From positions 2,356,001 to 2,420,000 of the forward strand of contig NC_013729.1 in the NCBI RefSeq assembly GCF_000024345.1: DNA of 64,000 bases. Reading direction: 5' to 3'. Below the pieces are notes generated by a model. The model saw only the letters and a program-made list of their open reading frames with translations. It was not told the origin of the DNA and did not search any database. Positions 2,546 to 64,000 of this stretch are shown piece by piece (the stretch's first letter is position 1; each line of letters opens with the position of its first letter). Made by a program: the position numbers and the translations under genes. Source of the stretch: Kribbella flavida DSM 17836 (GTDB taxonomy: Bacteria; Actinomycetota; Actinomycetes; Propionibacteriales; Kribbellaceae).

Positions 2546-4447
2546 TCATGCGTGCACCTCTTCCTCTTCTGCGGCCAGCAACTGCCGGTACGCCGGGACG
2601 GTGGCGAGCAGCTCGCCGTGCGTGCCGACGTGCGTGATCGTCCCGTTCTCCAGCAGCGCGACCTGGTCGGCCAGCATCACCGTGGACGCCCGGTGCGCCA
2701 CCACGATGCCGGTGGTCGCGGCGAGCACGTTGCGCAGCGCCTCCTCGACCAGGGCCTCGGTGTGGACGTCGAGCGCGGACAGGGTGTCGTCGAGCACCAG
2801 CACGGCCGGCTGCGCGAGCACCGCCCGGGCCAGCGCGAGCCGTTGCCGCTGGCCACCGGACAGCGACATGCCCTGCTCACCGACCCGGGTGTCCAGACCC
2901 CAGGGCAGGTCGTTCGCGAACGTCGCCTGGGCGATCTCCAGCGCCTGCTGGATCTCGGCGTCGGTGGCGTCCGGCCGGCCCAGGGCGAGGTTTTCCCGGA
3001 CCGACATCGAGAACAGCGTGGGGTCGTCGAAGGCCGACGCGACCGCGCTGCGCAGGGACTGCAGGTCGAGGTCGCGGACGTCGTGGCCGTCGATGGTGAT
3101 CCGGCCGCCGGTCACGTCGTACAGGCGGGGGACCAGCGCGGTCAGCGTGGTCTTGCCGGACCCGGTCGCGCCGACCAGCGCCAGCGTCGTACCGGGGGTG
3201 AGGTCGAGGTTGATGTCGTGCAGCACGTCGGCGGAGTCCGGCGTGAACCGGAAGCTGACGTTCTCGAACCGGAGGTGACCGCGGGGGTTCTCCAGCTGCT
3301 CCGGGCCGGAGACGATGGACGACCGGGTGTCCAGGATCTCGCTGATCCGGTCCGCCGAGGTCATCGCCTCCTGCGCCATCGCCAGAATGGTGCCGAGCGA
3401 CTGGACCGGCCAGATCAGCGACAGCATCAAGGTGATGAACGCGACCAGGGTGCCCAGCGTGATCGCCTCCCGGCCGACGGCGAGCGCGCCGAGCAGCAGC
3501 ACGACCACCAGGGTGAGGTTGGGGACCACTTCCAGGAAGGTCCAGAACCGCGACGCCAGCCGGACCTTCTCGATCGAGGTCCCGTACAGCTGTACCGCGC
3601 CGTCGTCGAACTGACGCTTCACGTGCTCGCGGCGGCCGAATGCCTTGATCACCCGGAAGCCGAGCGCGGACTCCTCGATCCGGGTGGCCAGGTCGCCCTG
3701 CTGGTCCTGGACCCGGCGGGAGATCGCCAGGTACTTCTTCTCGAACTTCAGCGACACCACGATGATCGGCACCGCGGCGACCAGCACCACCACGCCGAGC
3801 GGCCAGTACAGCCGCAGCAGCAGGATCGTGACGAGCACCAGCTGGAGGATGTTGATCACCAGGAACAGCAGGCCGAAGCCCATGAACCGGCGGATCGTGG
3901 ACAGGTCGACGGTGACCCGGCTGAGCAGCTGACCGCTCTGCCAGCGGTTGTGGAACTCCATCGGCAGCGACTGCAGCCGGACGTACAGGTCGTGCCGGAG
4001 GGTGGCCTCGAGGTCGCTGACGGCCCGGGACTGGGCCCAGCGGCGCATCCACACCAGCAGGACCTCGCTGATGCTGAGCCCGAGGGCGAGAAAGGCGAGC
4101 GGGACCAGCAGGTCGAGCTCGCGGCGGGTGACCGGTCCGTCGATGATGGCCCGGGTGACCAGGGGGACGGTCAAGCTGACGCCGACCCCGAGAATGGCCG
4201 TGGAGAACATGATCACCAGGCGCTTGCGGTGGGGCCGGAGGTAGGGCCGGAGCCGCCACAGGTTACGGCTGCGGGCGGGGGCGCGGGAGGAAGGGGGAGC
4301 GATCGACGGCGCTTGGGCAGGGTGCTCTGAGGGCATCTGGAGGGGCGCACTTCCCAACATGCTCGGCTGTGGGTGGGTGGCGACCGGAAAACGGCGCGAT
4401 TTCCAGTATCGCCCAGGGCTGGGCGGATGTCCCGGAAATTGCATCAC
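2546..4447 (-). CDS. ABC exporter half-transporter with degenerate Walker B
   Basis: First gene of the exporter pair, at most 633 residues. Six transmembrane helices precede an NBD with Walker A GATGSGKTT (about 425-433), signature LSGGQRQRL (about 527) and an H-loop in VVAHRAS. The residue after Walker B is aspartate (VLVLDDTLSALD) where a glutamate normally catalyses hydrolysis. This is the hallmark of the non-consensus site in heterodimeric exporters such as TM287/288 or BmrCD. The start is uncertain: the frame opens with GTG-ATG at 4447, but conserved sequence begins later, and ATGs at 4360 or 4336 are possible. It is expressed before the 544-2448 gene in a likely operon. Confidence 0.9.
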   Translation of the reverse strand: MMQFPGHPPSPGRYWKSRRFPVATHPQPSMLGSAPLQMPSEHPAQAPSIAPPSSRAPARSRNLWRLRPYLRPHRKRLVIMFSTAILGVGVSLTVPLVTRAIIDGPVTRRELDLLVPLAFLALGLSISEVLLVWMRRWAQSRAVSDLEATLRHDLYVRLQSLPMEFHNRWQSGQLLSRVTVDLSTIRRFMGFGLLFLVINILQLVLVTILLLRLYWPLGVVVLVAAVPIIVVSLKFEKKYLAISRRVQDQQGDLATRIEESALGFRVIKAFGRREHVKRQFDDGAVQLYGTSIEKVRLASRFWTFLEVVPNLTLVVVLLLGALAVGREAITLGTLVAFITLMLSLIWPVQSLGTILAMAQEAMTSADRISEILDTRSSIVSGPEQLENPRGHLRFENVSFRFTPDSADVLHDINLDLTPGTTLALVGATGSGKTTLTALVPRLYDVTGGRITIDGHDVRDLDLQSLRSAVASAFDDPTLFSMSVRENLALGRPDATDAEIQQALEIAQATFANDLPWGLDTRVGEQGMSLSGGQRQRLALARAVLAQPAVLVLDDTLSALDVHTEALVEEALRNVLAATTGIVVAHRASTVMLADQVALLENGTITHVGTHGELLATVPAYRQLLAAEEEEVHA

Positions 4448-10783: not shown

Positions 10784-10830
10784 CTCCACCGCCGCGTAGC
10801 CGTACGAGGCTGGAAGGTGGCCACGCGCCC

Positions 10831-10871
10831 AAAGGCCAGGTCGGCGGCCGGCGCCTCTGACCTGGGCCTTT
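10831..10871. terminator. Terminator hairpin after YCII gene
   Basis: AAAGGCC(C)AGGTC pairs with GACCTGGGCCTTT, with one bulged base and a 16-base loop, 48 bp after the YCII stop codon. The right arm ends in a T run. Confidence 0.65.
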
Positions 10872-10929
10872 GCTGCGGAGCTGCGGCTGGCGGGGCTCTC
10901 GCTGCCTGAGTGGGTGACACGCTTCCGAT

Positions 10930-11388
10930 ATGACGGTTACGGATGTAACACCGGAGAGCATCGACGGCTCAGTCGATGCCGAGGCCGCCCGGACATGGAT
11001 ATTTGCGGTGCACCAGTGGATCCGGAGGCAGCCGAGCGGCACGCAGCTCGTAGGAGAAGTGCGAATGCCCGGGCCGGGCTGGAACTACTACGGGGTTCGC
11101 GTTCAGCTGTCCAGTGACTCGACCCTTCGCCTTCTCTTGAACGCAGCGATCGGTCTCGTCGCCGCGTCCGAACACGAGAATGTGCCCGAGTTCGGTCCGC
11201 TGAGATTCCGCGTGGTTCCCAGCCCTGAAGTATTCGAAGCGCACGGTTTGCGCGTTGCGAGCGCAACTCAACTGGCAGCGGAGATCAGCGAGGCCGACCT
11301 TCACGCTCTGCCAGAGAGTCGGAGGAAAGACGTCCTGTATCACGGTCCGACGACGGTCGGCGACCTCCTTTTCAATTGGTTCGACTGA
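10930..11388 (+). CDS. Hypothetical protein
   Basis: A 152-residue acidic soluble protein with no signal peptide or membrane segment: WIFAVHQWIRRQP, MPGPGWNYYGVRVQ, LLLNAAIGLVAASEHENVPEFG, SRRKDVLYHGPTTVGDLLFNWFD. I recognise no family. Part of the gene (11221-11280) is 60% GC, lower than most of the window, and it lies just outside the tRNA-Gly element scar. It could be a transferred gene. Confidence 0.7.
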   Translation: MTVTDVTPESIDGSVDAEAARTWIFAVHQWIRRQPSGTQLVGEVRMPGPGWNYYGVRVQLSSDSTLRLLLNAAIGLVAASEHENVPEFGPLRFRVVPSPEVFEAHGLRVASATQLAAEISEADLHALPESRRKDVLYHGPTTVGDLLFNWFD

Positions 11389-59611: not shown

Positions 59612-62164
59612 GTGCGGACAAGACGATGGGTGCTCGCCCTGCTGGCCCCGGCGCTGCTGCTGGTGCCACTGCCGACCCAGGCCGCCGAACCGGCCGCACC
59701 GGTGGCCACCCCGGACAAGGTGGTCACGCTGATCACCGGCGATCAGGTCGTGCTGCGCGGCGGTGATCGGGACCGGGTCTCGATCGTCCAGGCCGCCGGG
59801 CGTGAGCAGGTCGGCTTCGAGAGCCGCCGGACCGCCGAAGAGTGGACGGTGATGCCGTCGGACGTCCGGGCCGCCGTGCAGAGCGGGCAGCTGGATCGCC
59901 GACTGTTCGACCTCGACCTGCTGGTGCGCGACGGGTACGACGACGCCGCCCGCGGCGACATCCCGGTGCTGGTCACCGGCTCGACGGTCGCGGCGCGGGA
60001 GGCCACGACGGTCCGCGCGCTGAAGTCCGGTACGGCGCTGTCGGTGCCGAAGGCGAAGGCCGCCGGGTTCCTCCAGCAGTTCGGTGTCCAGGGCATCGGC
60101 CGGCAGACGGCGACCGGAACGAAGATCTGGCTGGACCGGACGCTGCACACGTCGCTCGACCACAGCGTCCCGCAGATCGGCGCCCCGGCCGCCTGGCAGG
60201 CCGGCTACACCGGCAAGGGCGTCACCGTCGCCGTGCTGGACAGCGGCATCGACAGCACGCACCCGGACCTGGCCGGGCAGGTCGTCGCCGCCAAGAACTT
60301 CACCGCCGACCCGGCCGCCGACACCGGGGGACACGGCACGCACGTCGCCTCCACCATCGCCGGCAAGGGAACGAACGGCCACCGGGGTGTCGCCCCGGAC
60401 GCGAAGCTGCTGGACGGCAAGGTCTGCGACGATTTCGGGTACTGCTCGGAGTCGACCGTGCTGGCCGGTGTCGAGTGGGCGGTCGCGCAGCAGGCCAAGG
60501 TCGTCAACCTCAGCCTCGGTGGTCCGGCCGGTGACGAGACCGACCCGCTCGAGCAGGCCCTCGACCGCTTCACCCGAGAGGCCGGCACGCTGTTCGTCGT
60601 TGCTGCAGGCAACAACGGGCGTGAGGTCGAGTCACCCGGTACCGCGGCGTCGGCGCTGACCGTCGGCGCGATCGACGCGGACGAGAAGCTGGCCGACTTC
60701 TCCGCCCCCGGCCCGGGCCGGGGCGGCGCGATCAAGCCGGACCTCACCGCACCGGGCGTCGGGATCGTCGCCGCGCGGGCCGGCGGCTCGCACCCGGAGG
60801 AGCCGGTCGGCGACCGGTACGCCAAGATGTCCGGCACGTCGATGGCGACTCCGCACGCCGCCGGGGCGGCCGCGCTGCTCGCGCAGCAGCACGCCGGCTG
60901 GAAGGCGCCGGAGTTGAAGGCCGCGCTCACCTCGACCGCCAAGGCCAACCCGGAGCTCACGCCGTACCAGCAGGGTTCCGGGCGGGTCGACGTGGCGCGG
61001 GCGGTCGGGCAGTCGGTGGTCGCCGCGACGACCAGTGTGTCGTTCGGGACGGCGCGCTGGCCGCATGCCGACGACCAGCCGGTGACCCGGCAGGTGACGT
61101 ACCGCAACTTCGGCAGCACGCCGGTCACGCTCGACCTGCGGGCTGAGCTGAAGGCGGGCAGCAGTCCGGCTCCGGCCGGCGCGCTACGGCTGAGCGCTGA
61201 GCGGCTCACTGTCGCCGCCGGTGGCGAAGCTTCGGTGCAGATCGTTTCCGACACCACGCACGCCGGGCCCGACGGCCTCTACACCGGGCGGCTCCTCGCG
61301 ACCGCTGGTGCGCAGCAGGTCGTTGTGCCGCTGGTGGTCGACAAGGAGGTCGAGAGCTACGACGTGGCGGTGACCACGCTGGGCGCGGACGGCAAGCCGG
61401 TCCCGGCGGGGCAGGCGTTCGTGTCGTTCGCGCGGCTGGACAGCTGGGAGCCCTTCGACGGACGGGACGTGACCCGGCTGCCGAAGGGCAAGTACGTGCT
61501 GGACGCCACCGTCTTCGGGCCGGCCGGCCAGCACTACCGGATCGTGCAGCCCGAGTTCGACGTACGCCGGGACGCCGCCGTCGTGCTGGACGTCCGGACG
61601 GCGAAACCGGTGAAAGTCAGCGTGCCGCGGGCGGACGCCCGCGGGTTCGTCTCCTTCTTCGGCTACCAGCGCAGGACCGCCACGGGCGGCGAGATGTCGA
61701 CCTGGAACCTGCAGCCGCTGGGCGACCAGCTGTTCCTCGGCCGGCTCGGACGCCCGGTCCCGAACGAGCAGTTCAAGGCCTTCCTGGTCTCCTACCTGGG
61801 CCGCCTCGCCCCGGACGGCTCGCTGGCAGGCAGCCCGTTCGTCTACGGCCTGGTCGACACCCGGCGCGGCCAGTTCTTCGACGGGTTCCGCCGTACGATC
61901 CACTCGGACCGGCAGCTCGCGCACGTCGTCGCGCAGTACCGCGGCCCGGCCGGCACGGAGGACTCCTGGCGCCTCGTCGGCCGCCAACCCGGCGTCGACA
62001 CCATGCCCATCGGCGCCCCGGTCACCCTGCCGCACACCGTCCACCAGTACCTCGAACCCCGCACCAACTGGCAACAGGCCTTCGCCGACGAAACCCGCGA
62101 ACCCCGCCAGTACAAACCCGGCACCACCACCACCGAAACCTGGACCCACCCCACCCCCAGCTAA
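59612..62164 (+). CDS. Secreted S8 family (subtilisin) serine protease
   Basis: 850 residues from a GTG with AAGGAGAG upstream. Signal peptide (RTRRWVLALLAPALLLVPLPTQA), propeptide to about residue 180, then the subtilase domain with Asp210 in VAVLDSGID, His241 in GGHGTHVAST, oxyanion Asn334 in AAGNNGRE and Ser410 in SGTSMATPHAAG. The C-terminal half (about 470-850) is a beta-rich accessory region (TSVSFGTARWPHAD, PVTLDLRAEL, FGYQRRTATGG). It probably degrades extracellular protein. Its gene ends at a 63-bp-class palindromic repeat that can act as terminator. Confidence 0.95.
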   Translation: MRTRRWVLALLAPALLLVPLPTQAAEPAAPVATPDKVVTLITGDQVVLRGGDRDRVSIVQAAGREQVGFESRRTAEEWTVMPSDVRAAVQSGQLDRRLFDLDLLVRDGYDDAARGDIPVLVTGSTVAAREATTVRALKSGTALSVPKAKAAGFLQQFGVQGIGRQTATGTKIWLDRTLHTSLDHSVPQIGAPAAWQAGYTGKGVTVAVLDSGIDSTHPDLAGQVVAAKNFTADPAADTGGHGTHVASTIAGKGTNGHRGVAPDAKLLDGKVCDDFGYCSESTVLAGVEWAVAQQAKVVNLSLGGPAGDETDPLEQALDRFTREAGTLFVVAAGNNGREVESPGTAASALTVGAIDADEKLADFSAPGPGRGGAIKPDLTAPGVGIVAARAGGSHPEEPVGDRYAKMSGTSMATPHAAGAAALLAQQHAGWKAPELKAALTSTAKANPELTPYQQGSGRVDVARAVGQSVVAATTSVSFGTARWPHADDQPVTRQVTYRNFGSTPVTLDLRAELKAGSSPAPAGALRLSAERLTVAAGGEASVQIVSDTTHAGPDGLYTGRLLATAGAQQVVVPLVVDKEVESYDVAVTTLGADGKPVPAGQAFVSFARLDSWEPFDGRDVTRLPKGKYVLDATVFGPAGQHYRIVQPEFDVRRDAAVVLDVRTAKPVKVSVPRADARGFVSFFGYQRRTATGGEMSTWNLQPLGDQLFLGRLGRPVPNEQFKAFLVSYLGRLAPDGSLAGSPFVYGLVDTRRGQFFDGFRRTIHSDRQLAHVVAQYRGPAGTEDSWRLVGRQPGVDTMPIGAPVTLPHTVHQYLEPRTNWQQAFADETREPRQYKPGTTTTETWTHPTPS

Positions 62165-62187
62165 CCTGCCCCCCGCCCGCTCTTTCG

Positions 62188-62262
62188 GGGGATAACCCGC
62201 CAAATGCTGGGTCCACCCATCGCATTCGGGTGGGTGGACCCACAACTTGGCGGGTGAACCCC
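62188..62262. repeat. Diverged 63-bp palindromic unit, likely terminator
   Basis: CCCGCCAAATGCTGGGTCCACCCA (62196-62219) is matched inverted at 62231-62254 with three mismatches and an 11-base loop. Outer GGGG/CCCC arms extend the stem. The ATAACCC at 62192 and TGAACCC at 62255 are exactly 63 bp apart, as in the tandem repeats 130 bp downstream. It lies 24 bp after the subtilisin stop and would terminate that gene. Confidence 0.7.
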
Positions 62263-62388
62263 TGAACGTGCGGGACCGAAGCGTCGCGTCCGGGGTGTGC
62301 TCGGCGCCGGCGGGGAGCCCCGGGGGATGGGACGTGCGGTCAGCGGGCCTGGCCCAGACGCCGTGGCGCTCCACCCCCGGCGTCTCGC

Positions 62389-62587
62389 GGGTTAACCCGT
62401 CAGACGCAGGGTTGGCCCAGCAGAATCCGGTGGGCCAACCGTTTGCCTGGAGGGTTAACCCACGCGACGCGGGGTGGGCCCAGCAGATTCCGGTGAGGCG
62501 ACCACTCGTCTGCGGGGTTAGCCCGCGAGGTGCAGGGTTGGCCCAGCGGATTCTGGGGGGCCAACCAATCATCTGAAGGGTTAACCC
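62389..62587. repeat. Three tandem 63-bp palindromic repeats plus a partial fourth
   Basis: GGGTTAACCC (or GGGTTAGCCC) occurs at 62389, 62452, 62515 and 62578, always 63 bp apart. In each unit it is followed by a hairpin: in unit 1, GGTTGGCCCA and TGGGCCAACC with an 11-base loop; perfect or near-perfect in units 1 and 3, degraded in unit 2. The array overlaps the 3' end of the minus-strand GNAT gene in frame (63 bp is 21 codons). Confidence 0.9.
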
Positions 62588-63815
62588 ATCGGAGCGGGCT
62601 GCCGGGCGGGTGAGGAGCGGGTGGGGGAAGGGGGCAGGTGGGGGGTGAGGTGCGGAGCCAGAGGTCCTGGCGTTCGACCACGCGGAAGCCGAGCTGCTGG
62701 TTCACCGCGAGCATCGGGTGGTTCGCCTCGGCGTTCCAGGTGTGGACCGTGCCGGGGGCGTCGCGCGCCGAGCGGGTCGCCGCCTGCAGGTTCGCGGCCT
62801 TGAGCGCGATTCCGAGCCGCCGGCCCCGGTGCTCGCGGCGTACGAGTGTCGACCGCTGCTCGAACTGCCCCGGCCGCGTCGGGGTCCCGGCGAGCTCCGT
62901 GAACCCCACCAGCACCCCGCCCGCGGCGGCGACCGTCGTCCATCCGGTCCGGCCGTGCTCGCGCCGATGGGCTTCGGCCGTGCGCAGCCGTTCGACCGTC
63001 CAGCGCTTCGGTTCGATCGCCAGCTCGTCGAGCGGGACCTCCTGATCCACCAGGCCGAGCAACCCGCAGTACTCGTCGACGTACTGCGCCGGGCACGCGT
63101 CCGGCCAGCTGATCAGCTCGTACTCCCGGTGGTACGGCGCCGCTTCGGCCGCGAGCGCTTCCAGACGGTCCGTGGGCAGGTCGAGAACGAGGTGCAGCGC
63201 GGAGTACTGGCGAGTGAAGCCGTGCGCCTCGGCGAAGGCCGGACCCGGGACCGGGCCCGCGGCGGCGTACGGGGTGAAGGTCTCGCCGAGTACGACGGTG
63301 CGGTGGTCGGCGGCGGCCTGCTGGCGTACGGCGTCGAGCAGGAGCGTGCCGGCGCCTCGACGACGGGCCGACGGGAGAACGGCGAGGTCAGCGACGAGCA
63401 GATGCCGGTTCTCGGACTGGGAGAAGGTCAGCCAGGCAGCTCCGACCACCCGCGAGCCGTCGACACACGCGAAGCACGCGAACCGGTACTCCGGCGGTGG
63501 ATCCCGCAGCAACGTCTCCGCCTCGGCCCGAGGGAGCAGCGTCGGGAACTCCCGCAGCGAAGCAACCTCCTCCAACACCGCGTACGCCGAAGCCAGGTCG
63601 ACGCGGCCCACCACGGATGCCGCCGACGGGTCGACGCCGGGCGTGGCGGGTGCCGCGTCGCTACCAGCCGACGGGATGTCGCCGGCCGTCGCCAACGGGT
63701 CGGCGCCGTTCCCCGCGGGCGCCGCCGAGGCGCCGCCGCCGTCCCTCGCCGGTCCCGCCGACCCCTCGCCGTACACCGCCGACGGGTGGCCCGGGGTGAC
63801 GCGGGTGACCCGCAT
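62400..63815 (-). CDS. GNAT family N-acetyltransferase with two GNAT domains and repeat-derived tail
   Basis: 471 residues from the ATG at 63815. Residues 1-70 are Ala/Gly/Pro-rich low complexity. The first GNAT domain has LVADLAVLPSARRRGAGTLLL, the second RSTLVRREHRGRRLGIALKAANL and VHTWNAEANHPMLAVNQQLGF. By comparison with the paralogue at 58514 the natural end should be near residue 390. The last 85 or so residues are a Pro-rich linker and repeats of 21 residues (WVNPSDDWLAPQNPLGQP type) translated from the 63-bp array; the stop lies inside the first unit. The start is 3 bp after the pheA stop, so the two share a transcript. Confidence 0.82.
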   Translation of the reverse strand: MRVTRVTPGHPSAVYGEGSAGPARDGGGASAAPAGNGADPLATAGDIPSAGSDAAPATPGVDPSAASVVGRVDLASAYAVLEEVASLREFPTLLPRAEAETLLRDPPPEYRFACFACVDGSRVVGAAWLTFSQSENRHLLVADLAVLPSARRRGAGTLLLDAVRQQAAADHRTVVLGETFTPYAAAGPVPGPAFAEAHGFTRQYSALHLVLDLPTDRLEALAAEAAPYHREYELISWPDACPAQYVDEYCGLLGLVDQEVPLDELAIEPKRWTVERLRTAEAHRREHGRTGWTTVAAAGGVLVGFTELAGTPTRPGQFEQRSTLVRREHRGRRLGIALKAANLQAATRSARDAPGTVHTWNAEANHPMLAVNQQLGFRVVERQDLWLRTSPPTCPLPPPAPHPPGSPLRWVNPSDDWLAPQNPLGQPCTSRANPADEWSPHRNLLGPPRVAWVNPPGKRLAHRILLGQPCV

Positions 63816-63818
63816 CGG

Positions 63819-64000
63819 TCAGTGGTGGGGGCGGAGGGCGCGGTTGGCGGCCGGTTCGGCGATGCGGTCGCGGAAGGGGTGCGCGGGGTAGACGCCGAGC
63901 AGGCGGACCTCGACCGAGAAGAAGGCGAGCTCCTCCAGCGCGAGGGCGACGTTCGGGTCCTCGGGGTGGCCCTCGACGTCGGCGTAGAACTGGGTGGCGA
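63819..64000 (-). CDS. pheA: Prephenate dehydratase, C-terminal end
   Basis: Only the last 60 codons are in the window. The sequence, FYADVEGHPEDPNVALALEEL then VRLLGVYPAHPFRDR, is the C-terminal part of the ACT regulatory domain of prephenate dehydratase, which converts prephenate to phenylpyruvate in phenylalanine synthesis and is feedback-inhibited through this domain. The catalytic part lies beyond 64000. Confidence 0.88.
   Translation of the reverse strand, partial: ATQFYADVEGHPEDPNVALALEELAFFSVEVRLLGVYPAHPFRDRIAEPAANRALRPHH

What the first reader, a model, noticed from the sequence alone, without database searches (positions are those of the whole stretch)
62188..62587. Family of 63-bp palindromic units, four full copies, two architectures
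Three tandem units with exact 63-bp period begin with GGGTTAACCC and contain a ten-base-pair hairpin. A fourth, more diverged unit 200 bp away keeps the same 63-bp spacing and the same order of parts: a TAACCC end, then a GGGTCCACCC...GGGTGGACCC hairpin. In units 1 and 3 both arms of the stem still pair, with differences between units on both arms, which suggests selection or constraint on the fold. This does not match any repeat class I know by name.
Basis: partly seen in the sequence, partly recalled or inferred. Interest (0 to 1): 0.65.

Follow-up and report, generated by a model that had tools for sequence, protein, structure and literature searches.

The report
Dispersed fixed-length palindromic elements in Kribbella
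The four units belong to a family of about ninety short hairpin DNA elements of constant length scattered through this soil bacterium and its relatives, mostly behind genes, where they look like mobile repeats that may double as stop signals for transcription.

Summary
Confirmed, and wider than seen. The four units (62182-62594) share one gapless 87-column layout, four boxes spaced 20-23-20, in two subfamilies (A once; B three times in tandem, sharing ends). The genome matches Kribbella flavida by exact length and holds at least 92 copies. Of 89 mapped, 84 are intergenic; gaps with a copy are convergent in 37 of 74 cases, gaps without one in 32 of 241 (but 14 of 46 in the window). Models of the two subfamilies match 34 and 35 of 38 genomes of the genus; the letters differ, the length hardly. 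In 44 copies, one 40-pair hairpin shows 318 two-sided changes against 115 in shuffles. A copy sits in frame in an acetyltransferase gene in 3 of 7 orthologues, and one copy with flanks (142 bp, 92%) recurs at an unrelated locus. So these are REP/MITE-like elements that move or moved. A Y1 transposase was found in 1 of 38 genomes, not in this one; the mobilizer is unknown. In convergent gaps the copy is the only hairpin above background; I infer a two-way terminator, though no U-tract follows. New variant of a known kind.

The parts
62182..62268 (.). Element of subfamily A, full 87 columns; outer boxes 62189-62198 and 62252-62261
   Evidence: profile scan, fold z -8.2, box search
62382..62468 (.). 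Element of subfamily B, tandem unit 1; outer boxes 62389-62398 and 62452-62461
62445..62531 (.). Element of subfamily B, tandem unit 2, central stem broken; shares its ends with units 1 and 3
   Evidence: lowest score of the 89 mapped copies, 56.1
62508..62594 (.). Element of subfamily B, tandem unit 3; outer boxes 62515-62524 (GGGTTAGCCC) and 62578-62587
59612..62164 (+). Subtilase (S8) gene upstream of the A element; its stop is 17 bp before the 87-mer
   Evidence: ORF, Pfam PF00082, E 6.6e-62
62400..63815 (-). GNAT acetyltransferase ORF, convergent with the subtilase; runs into the B array
   Evidence: ORF, Pfam PF00583, E 3.5e-16
62400..62648 (-). C-terminal stretch of that ORF (about 82 residues) without homology in the relatives' genes, coded by spacer and repeats
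   Evidence: tblastn matches in six relatives' loci end at residues 383-389 of 471
63819..64000 (-). 3' end of a prephenate dehydratase gene that continues beyond the window
   Evidence: Pfam PF00800 on L055:4638-5516

Best explanation
The units are copies of one family of short palindromic elements of Kribbella. Each is about 87 nt, can fold as one hairpin of up to 40 pairs, and carries a smaller 24-bp palindrome at each end; tandem units share these ends, which gives the 63-bp period. Shown: the family is dispersed, nearly constant in length, and mostly outside genes; presence differs between species, even in frame inside a gene; one recent extra copy lies at an unrelated place. Inferred: copies spread as non-autonomous mobile DNA, handled by something other than a resident Y1 transposase, which may read the folded strand more than the letters. 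Inferred: a copy between convergent genes serves as a hairpin that ends or protects both transcripts, which helps it to persist there.
For: At least 92 copies. Exact GGGTTAACCC at 49 places of the genome, 48 of them outer boxes of mapped elements, 1 at the reversed control. 84 of 89 copies intergenic. Gaps with an element: 37 of 74 convergent and 6 of 74 divergent, against 32 and 64 of 241 without. Matches in 34 and 35 of 38 genomes of the genus, at 86-87 nt in those read. Long hairpin across 44 copies: 318 two-sided changes against 115.3, 0 of 500 shuffles, slid controls far lower. In-frame insertion in 3, absent in 4 of 7 orthologues. Near-identical 142 bp at two loci with unrelated neighbours. 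In 31 convergent gaps with an element no other hairpin beyond background (+0.90 kcal/mol, p 0.17); in 24 without one a hairpin beyond background (-5.05, p 0.013); difference p 0.004.
Against: No mobilizing enzyme and no target-site duplication found. The recent duplicate includes about 20 bp of flank on each side, unlike precise transposition. With the window as background (14 of 46 pairs convergent) the convergent excess is only p 0.039, and subfamily A hardly shows it: 11 of 34 copies against 34 of 55 of B. No U-tract: 0 of 178 ends have TTTT within 10 nt. In co-directional gaps the hairpin contrast is not significant (p 0.13). At shared places the letters are no closer than random pairs in 9 of 10 comparisons. 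The relatives' copies were mostly top hits of models that reward pairing.
Confidence: 0.68

Rival explanations
1. Purely selfish REP/MITE-like repeats without a function; they lie after genes because insertions into genes and promoters were removed by selection.
For: Divergent gaps are avoided (6 of 74 against 64 of 241); copy number runs from none to many among 38 genomes; two own copies lie inside other genes in frame.
Against: Convergent gaps with an element lack any other hairpin above background while gaps without one have theirs. In 8 of 43 distinct relatives' places I read the element as lying in the same gap or at the same gene end as an own one.
Confidence: 0.3
2. The matched arms are kept by palindrome-correcting copying (template switching within the hairpin), not by selection on the fold; the elements are then by-products of repair.
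For: Two-sided changes (318 cells) far outnumber one-sided ones in the pair table; G-T and A-C mismatches are about equal, 81 and 66 of 1280 cells on the sense strand and 65 and 77 of 1760 in the cross-species set; the recent duplicate carries flanks.
Against: It does not explain the nearly constant 86-87 nt, the invariant GG..CC and nearly invariant GGTT/AACC columns or the placement.
Confidence: 0.2
3. Arrays of duplex binding sites for a chromosome protein (for example gyrase or a nucleoid protein) near converging transcription, as proposed for BIMEs.
For: Box columns are more conserved than spacers (mean information 1.69 against 0.93 bits in B, 1.45 against 0.86 in A); spacing 20-23-20 is near two helical turns.
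Against: No solitary boxes: 48 of 49 exact boxes lie in full units. Left and right boxes vary together as one hairpin (z 4.1), not each with itself (z -2.6), in 51 B copies.
Confidence: 0.12
4. A local duplication in this window with no wider role.
For: The three B units are tandem.
Against: At least 92 copies in the genome and matches in most of the genus.
Confidence: 0.01

Closest known systems
REP / BIME repeats, GTAG and CGTC super-families (PMC3733652, passages read)
   Same: Short palindromes in many copies, mostly outside genes, favouring convergent and co-directional gaps close to 3' ends, sometimes inside genes at the same site in related species; CGTC repeats also lack a dedicated transposase
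   Different: 87 nt instead of 20-40 bp; no GTAG or CGTC tag in the end columns; no Y1 transposase here; constant length with free sequence; the paper's text has no hit for Kribbella or Actinobacteria
MITEs, including ERIC, BOX, RUP and the terminator-like SPRITE (PMC10969869, passages read)
   Same: Short, non-coding, inverted-repeat, clustered or nested, may carry terminator-like hairpins
   Different: No parent transposon and no target-site duplication found; whole element is palindromic; tandem copies share ends
Rickettsia palindromic elements (PMC10969869, passages)
   Same: Palindromic, can sit in frame inside protein genes
   Different: Here 5 of 89 copies overlap a called gene, three of these being the array in the acetyltransferase tail; shorter; other phylum
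Intrinsic transcription terminators
   Same: Stable G+C-rich hairpin soon after genes; in convergent gaps the only hairpin above background
   Different: A repeated sequence family, longer and more symmetric, with no U-tract

Membership tests
REP (GTAG type) | Associated RAYT (Y1 transposase) in the genome | tested here: not met
   PF01797: 0 matches in the own genome, 1 of 38 genomes of the genus; the control rings in 5 of 14 named genomes
REP (GTAG type) | GTAG or CGTC tetranucleotide at the foot of the hairpin | tested here: not met
   Column frequencies of the ends and 25-bp flanks of 52 B and 25 A copies
REP (GTAG type) | Many copies, mostly outside genes | tested here: met
   84 of 89
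REP (GTAG type) | Unit of 20-40 bp | tested here: not met
   87 columns
MITE | Terminal inverted repeats | tested here: met
   Whole element is an inverted repeat
MITE | Target-site duplication | tested here: inconclusive
   Filled and empty forms of one gene could be aligned but the linker varies
MITE | Parent transposon with the same ends | tested here: inconclusive
   48 of 49 exact outer boxes lie in full-length units, none in a longer one; degenerate single arms were not searched
MITE | Presence/absence between relatives | tested here: met
   3 filled, 4 empty of 7 orthologous genes
Rickettsia palindromic element | Frequent in-frame insertion in protein genes | tested here: not met
   5 of 89 copies overlap a called gene by 50 bp or more
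Intrinsic terminator | Stable G+C-rich hairpin downstream of genes | tested here: met
   Median -59 kcal/mol as RNA for 77 copies; placement
Intrinsic terminator | U-tract after the hairpin | tested here: not met
   0 of 178 ends with TTTT in the next 10 nt
Intrinsic terminator | Stops transcription | not testable with these tools
   needs transcript-end mapping or a read-through assay
Described RNA family (Rfam 15) | Covariance match over the gathering score | tested here: not met
   61900-62900 only: one match below gathering, 23.3 against 100 bits

The most novel reading that the evidence does not exclude
A class of mobile terminators whose shape is inherited while the letters are not: an 86-87-nt element of nested palindromes kept at nearly constant length in Kribbella and in a genus of another family of the order, copied by an unknown enzyme or repair process that recognises the folded single strand, and taken up again and again as a two-way transcription stop at the same gene ends in different species.
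Probability: 0.25. Interest if true: 0.75.

Novelty: new variant of a known kind. Interest (0 to 1): 0.5.

Why it matters
My paper searches (open-licence papers only) gave no description of a palindromic repeat family in Kribbella. A family with about 90 copies, no RAYT, nearly constant length and free turnover of letters would point to another way for REP-like DNA to spread. If the terminator role holds, mobile DNA supplies many 3' ends of genes in these genomes, and the elements could serve as two-way terminators in high-G+C hosts.

Tried and rejected
Independent 24-bp palindromes as the basic unit: weaker covariation than one long hairpin (score 0.297 against 0.471) and no solitary exact outer boxes among 49. 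Insertion into a pre-existing 24-bp palindrome that is then duplicated: set aside for the same lack of solitary boxes. RAYT-driven REP: no Y1 transposase here and 1 of 38 in the genus. RNA-level selection through an excess of G-U pairs: not seen. A gene tied to the elements in the large spacers of L101 and L052: only mechanical ORFs, read by eye, no transposase recognised. Vertical descent of single copies by sequence: at shared places the relative's element is no closer to the own copy there than to other own copies in 9 of 10 comparisons; L175/L071 is at the 94th percentile. In-place replacement and re-insertion cannot be told apart. First alignments of A copies put gaps at the ends; a 21-copy core alignment was used. 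Mutual information on 25 copies was uninformative.

Rows dropped before counts: one search kept 51 of 55 B and 23 of 34 A copies (score over 88); one search used copies over 85 with co-directional neighbours (32); (energies) left out the copies under 85 (12 of 89), 77 kept; one search left out seven relatives' loci without a match to the 87-column profile (shown); one search used gaps of 20-500 bp only. Gene contexts in the second family rest on a codon model trained on 12 stretches and differ in places, so they are not counted. An earlier count said 35 bp for the distance in G024 and 'mostly convergent' for that second family; the report corrects the first (16 bp) and withdraws the second. 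Not used: structure prediction, fold search, and the viral, phage, plasmid and E. coli collections.

Full report
What is there. The window lies at 2356001-2420000 of a single 7,579,488-bp contig. That is exactly the published length of the Kribbella flavida type strain genome (PMC3035274, passages), and the closest conserved-gene relatives are titled Kribbella, one excepted. The region holds one element of subfamily A (62182-62268) and three tandem elements of subfamily B (62382-62594). All four fit one gapless frame of 87 columns with boxes at columns 8-17, 28-37, 51-60 and 71-80. The 63-bp period arises because tandem units share a 24-bp end palindrome. The third boundary is GGGTTAGCCC, and the middle stem of unit 2 is broken.

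Copies in this genome. BLAST with the A stretch gave 46 matches and with the B stretch 80, both strands counted and 40 first-look candidates scored in each. A covariance model of 25 B copies gave 132 matches at E up to 1, both strands counted, 150 of 2379 candidates being scored. I fetched 68 stretches round these sites, and a profile scan mapped 89 copies, 55 B and 34 A; 12 of the 89 score under 85 and the lowest is unit 2 of the finding. Three more A-like copies came and were read. All these counts are lower bounds. The exact outer box GGGTTAACCC occurs at 49 places in 7.58 Mb; 48 of them are outer boxes of mapped elements. The other is an operator-like palindrome beside a regulator gene that looks MerR-like to me. 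So the element exists as a unit and not as scattered boxes.

Where copies sit. With a codon-based gene caller of my own, 84 of 89 copies are intergenic and 5 overlap a called gene by 50 bp or more; 3 of these 5 are the finding's B array. Gaps with an element are convergent in 37 of 74 cases, against 32 of 241 non-overlapping gaps without one in the same stretches (odds ratio 6.5, p 3e-10). Divergent gaps hold 6 of 74 against 64 of 241. The comparison gaps come from neighbourhoods of elements. In the window itself 14 of 46 adjacent pairs are convergent, and against that the excess is only p 0.039. The bias belongs mainly to B (34 of 55 copies convergent) and hardly to A (11 of 34).

Fold. On 25 B copies neither the long hairpin nor the local palindromes exceeded column-composition controls. 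On 51 B copies the outer boxes pair left to right more than expected (z 4.1) and not with themselves (z -2.6); the inner boxes give z 4.5, the outer spacers 2.0, and the columns next to the loop -2.3. On 23 A copies the outer spacers give z 3.7 and the outer boxes 2.9, but the inner boxes -2.1 and the loop-side columns -1.8. Across 44 copies (38 from relatives, 6 own) the long hairpin is strongly supported: 87.0% of cells paired against 69.1%, 34 of 40 pairs with two-sided changes and 6 that never vary, 318 two-sided cells against 115.3, 0 of 500 shuffles, slid versions far lower. The end palindromes are real but weaker. The relatives' copies were mostly top hits of models that reward pairing, which favours well-paired copies. 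G-T and A-C mismatches are about equal, 81 and 66 of 1280 cells on the sense strand, so nothing points to RNA in particular.

Relatives. The B model matches 34 of 38 genomes of the genus, the own one included, and the A model 35 of 38. With the cross-species model G028 has 12 matches, while G010, G011 and G037 have none at E 0.01; G037 has two weak matches to the A model. Copies differ in sequence but keep 86-87 nt in those read. In a sample of 391 genomes of the order 49 match, 35 of them of this genus, in 7 of 40 genera; only 11 candidates per genome were scored there. One further genus (label g6), in another family, has elements of 85-86 nt with the same layout and other letters. Some matches in other genera look like different hairpin repeats. 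In 394 genomes sampled from the class, 3 match: the own genome, one of g6 and one other.

Same places, other letters. I compared the neighbours of 48 relatives' loci (43 distinct places) with the own loci. In 8 of 43 I read the relative's element as lying in the same gap or at the same gene end as an own element. The own gaps are about 74 among some 7,000 genes, so chance would give about 1%; this is a rough figure, not a test. At the finding's own place, the subtilase relative of G024 has an element 16 bp after its stop. That of G009 has a plain hairpin there, and five others have no match to the A or B model in the stretch held; in some of these five the next gene differs, so the place may not be the same. 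In 166 kb round murQ in 21 Kribbella-like loci and the own one, 3 elements were found, one of them the own copy. Sequences at shared places are no closer than random pairs in 9 of 10 comparisons.

Mobility. Downstream of murQ an acetyltransferase gene could be compared in 7 loci: the own genome, G009, and 5 of the 21 Kribbella-like loci; in the other 16 it was not found. It carries an in-frame element in 3 (own, G009, Kribbella sp. ALI-6-A) and a 21-27-nt linker without it in 4. It is the only copy detected in G009 (2 matches, one per strand). In the own genome the copies at 5602817 and 6828831 are nearly identical in opposite orientation, with about 20 bp of flank on each side, 142 bp at 92% in all. 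The called neighbouring proteins of the two loci give no blastp match at E 0.01; tblastx gave only short scattered fragments beside the element. No Y1 transposase was found in the own genome, and 1 of 38 genomes of the genus has one. Target-site duplications could not be read.

Likely function. In 31 convergent gaps with an element, the best hairpin outside the element is no stronger than in coding segments of the same length (mean +0.90 kcal/mol, p 0.17). In 24 convergent gaps without one, a hairpin stronger than background is present (mean -5.05, p 0.013; difference p 0.004). The element itself folds at a median of -59 kcal/mol (77 copies). So in these gaps it appears to stand in for the ordinary terminator. 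It lacks a U-tract: 0 of 178 ends have TTTT in the next 10 nt. That actinobacterial terminators often lack U-tracts is recalled, not looked up. For co-directional gaps the same contrast is not significant (p 0.13).

In the window. The acetyltransferase ORF 62400-63815 runs into the B array. Matches in six relatives' loci stop at residues 383-389 of 471, so about 82 residues are coded by spacer and repeats. The array can be read through because 63 is divisible by three and the frame meets no stop before 62400. Whether this tail is made is unknown.

Comparison with the known. The passages that I read of the REP survey PMC3733652 describe 20-40-bp palindromes tagged GTAG or CGTC, biased to convergent and co-directional gaps, some inside genes at about the same site in related species, GTAG ones tied to RAYT transposases; its text has no hit for Kribbella or Actinobacteria. 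The MITE review PMC10969869 (passages) mentions the terminator-like SPRITE and in-frame Rickettsia palindromic elements. The Kribbella family works like these, but it fails defining tests of a GTAG REP (RAYT, tag, size) and leaves MITE tests open. Searches that gave no description: Kribbella with palindromic, GGGTTAACCC (20 of 25 papers listed, judged by title and abstract start), REP with Actinobacteria, Kribbella flavida with repeat (15 of 19 listed), palindromic elements with MITE terms, Nocardioides with palindromic repeats, Kribbella with interspersed repeat. Only open-licence papers are held.

Verdict. I am confident that it is a dispersed palindromic family of the REP/MITE kind, fairly confident that copies move or moved, and only moderately confident that they serve as two-way terminators. 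The near-constant length with free sequence, and the missing mobilizer, are what a specialist would find unusual.

Noticed in passing
window 62400-62648 (-): The acetyltransferase ORF loses homology at about residue 389 of 471 and continues through the B array, so its last 82 or so residues are coded by spacer and repeats.
   Followed up: partly
G000:C1 6.0-6.9 Mb: Subfamily A is crowded here: 13 of 34 loci against 4.0 expected (p 8e-5, region chosen after looking); B is not, 8 of 44.
   Followed up: no
L060 2205-3665 (-): An A-like copy, partly decayed at one end, lies in frame within an ORF with an APS kinase domain, outside the domain itself.
   Followed up: no
L216 about 3001-3010 (G000:C1:2073926): The only exact GGGTTAACCC outside the mapped elements is an operator-like palindrome between divergent genes, one of which looks like a MerR-type regulator (by eye).
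   Followed up: no
L078 8001-8087 and L098 3001-3087: Nearly identical copies 1.2 Mb apart share about 20 bp of flank on each side that is not part of the palindrome; the copied unit was larger than the element.
   Followed up: partly
L101 9872-10343: Three B copies lie in a segment repeated together with flanks, in a 2.4-kb stretch where my caller found no gene; a mechanical ORF at 10814-11212 there looks coding.
   Followed up: no
L201 and L212 (genome G263): Other hairpin repeats, built on GGGGACGGTTCTCC, in a genome of another family of the order; they match the model weakly and look like a different family.
   Followed up: no
L199, L208 and L220-L223 (genome G028): A variant with GGTTACCCC inner arms, missed by the A and B models but found by the cross-species one.
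   Followed up: no
L238: A record titled Streptomyces sp. SID13031 carries a murQ locus 89% identical to the own one, among the Kribbella records; perhaps mislabelled.
   Followed up: no
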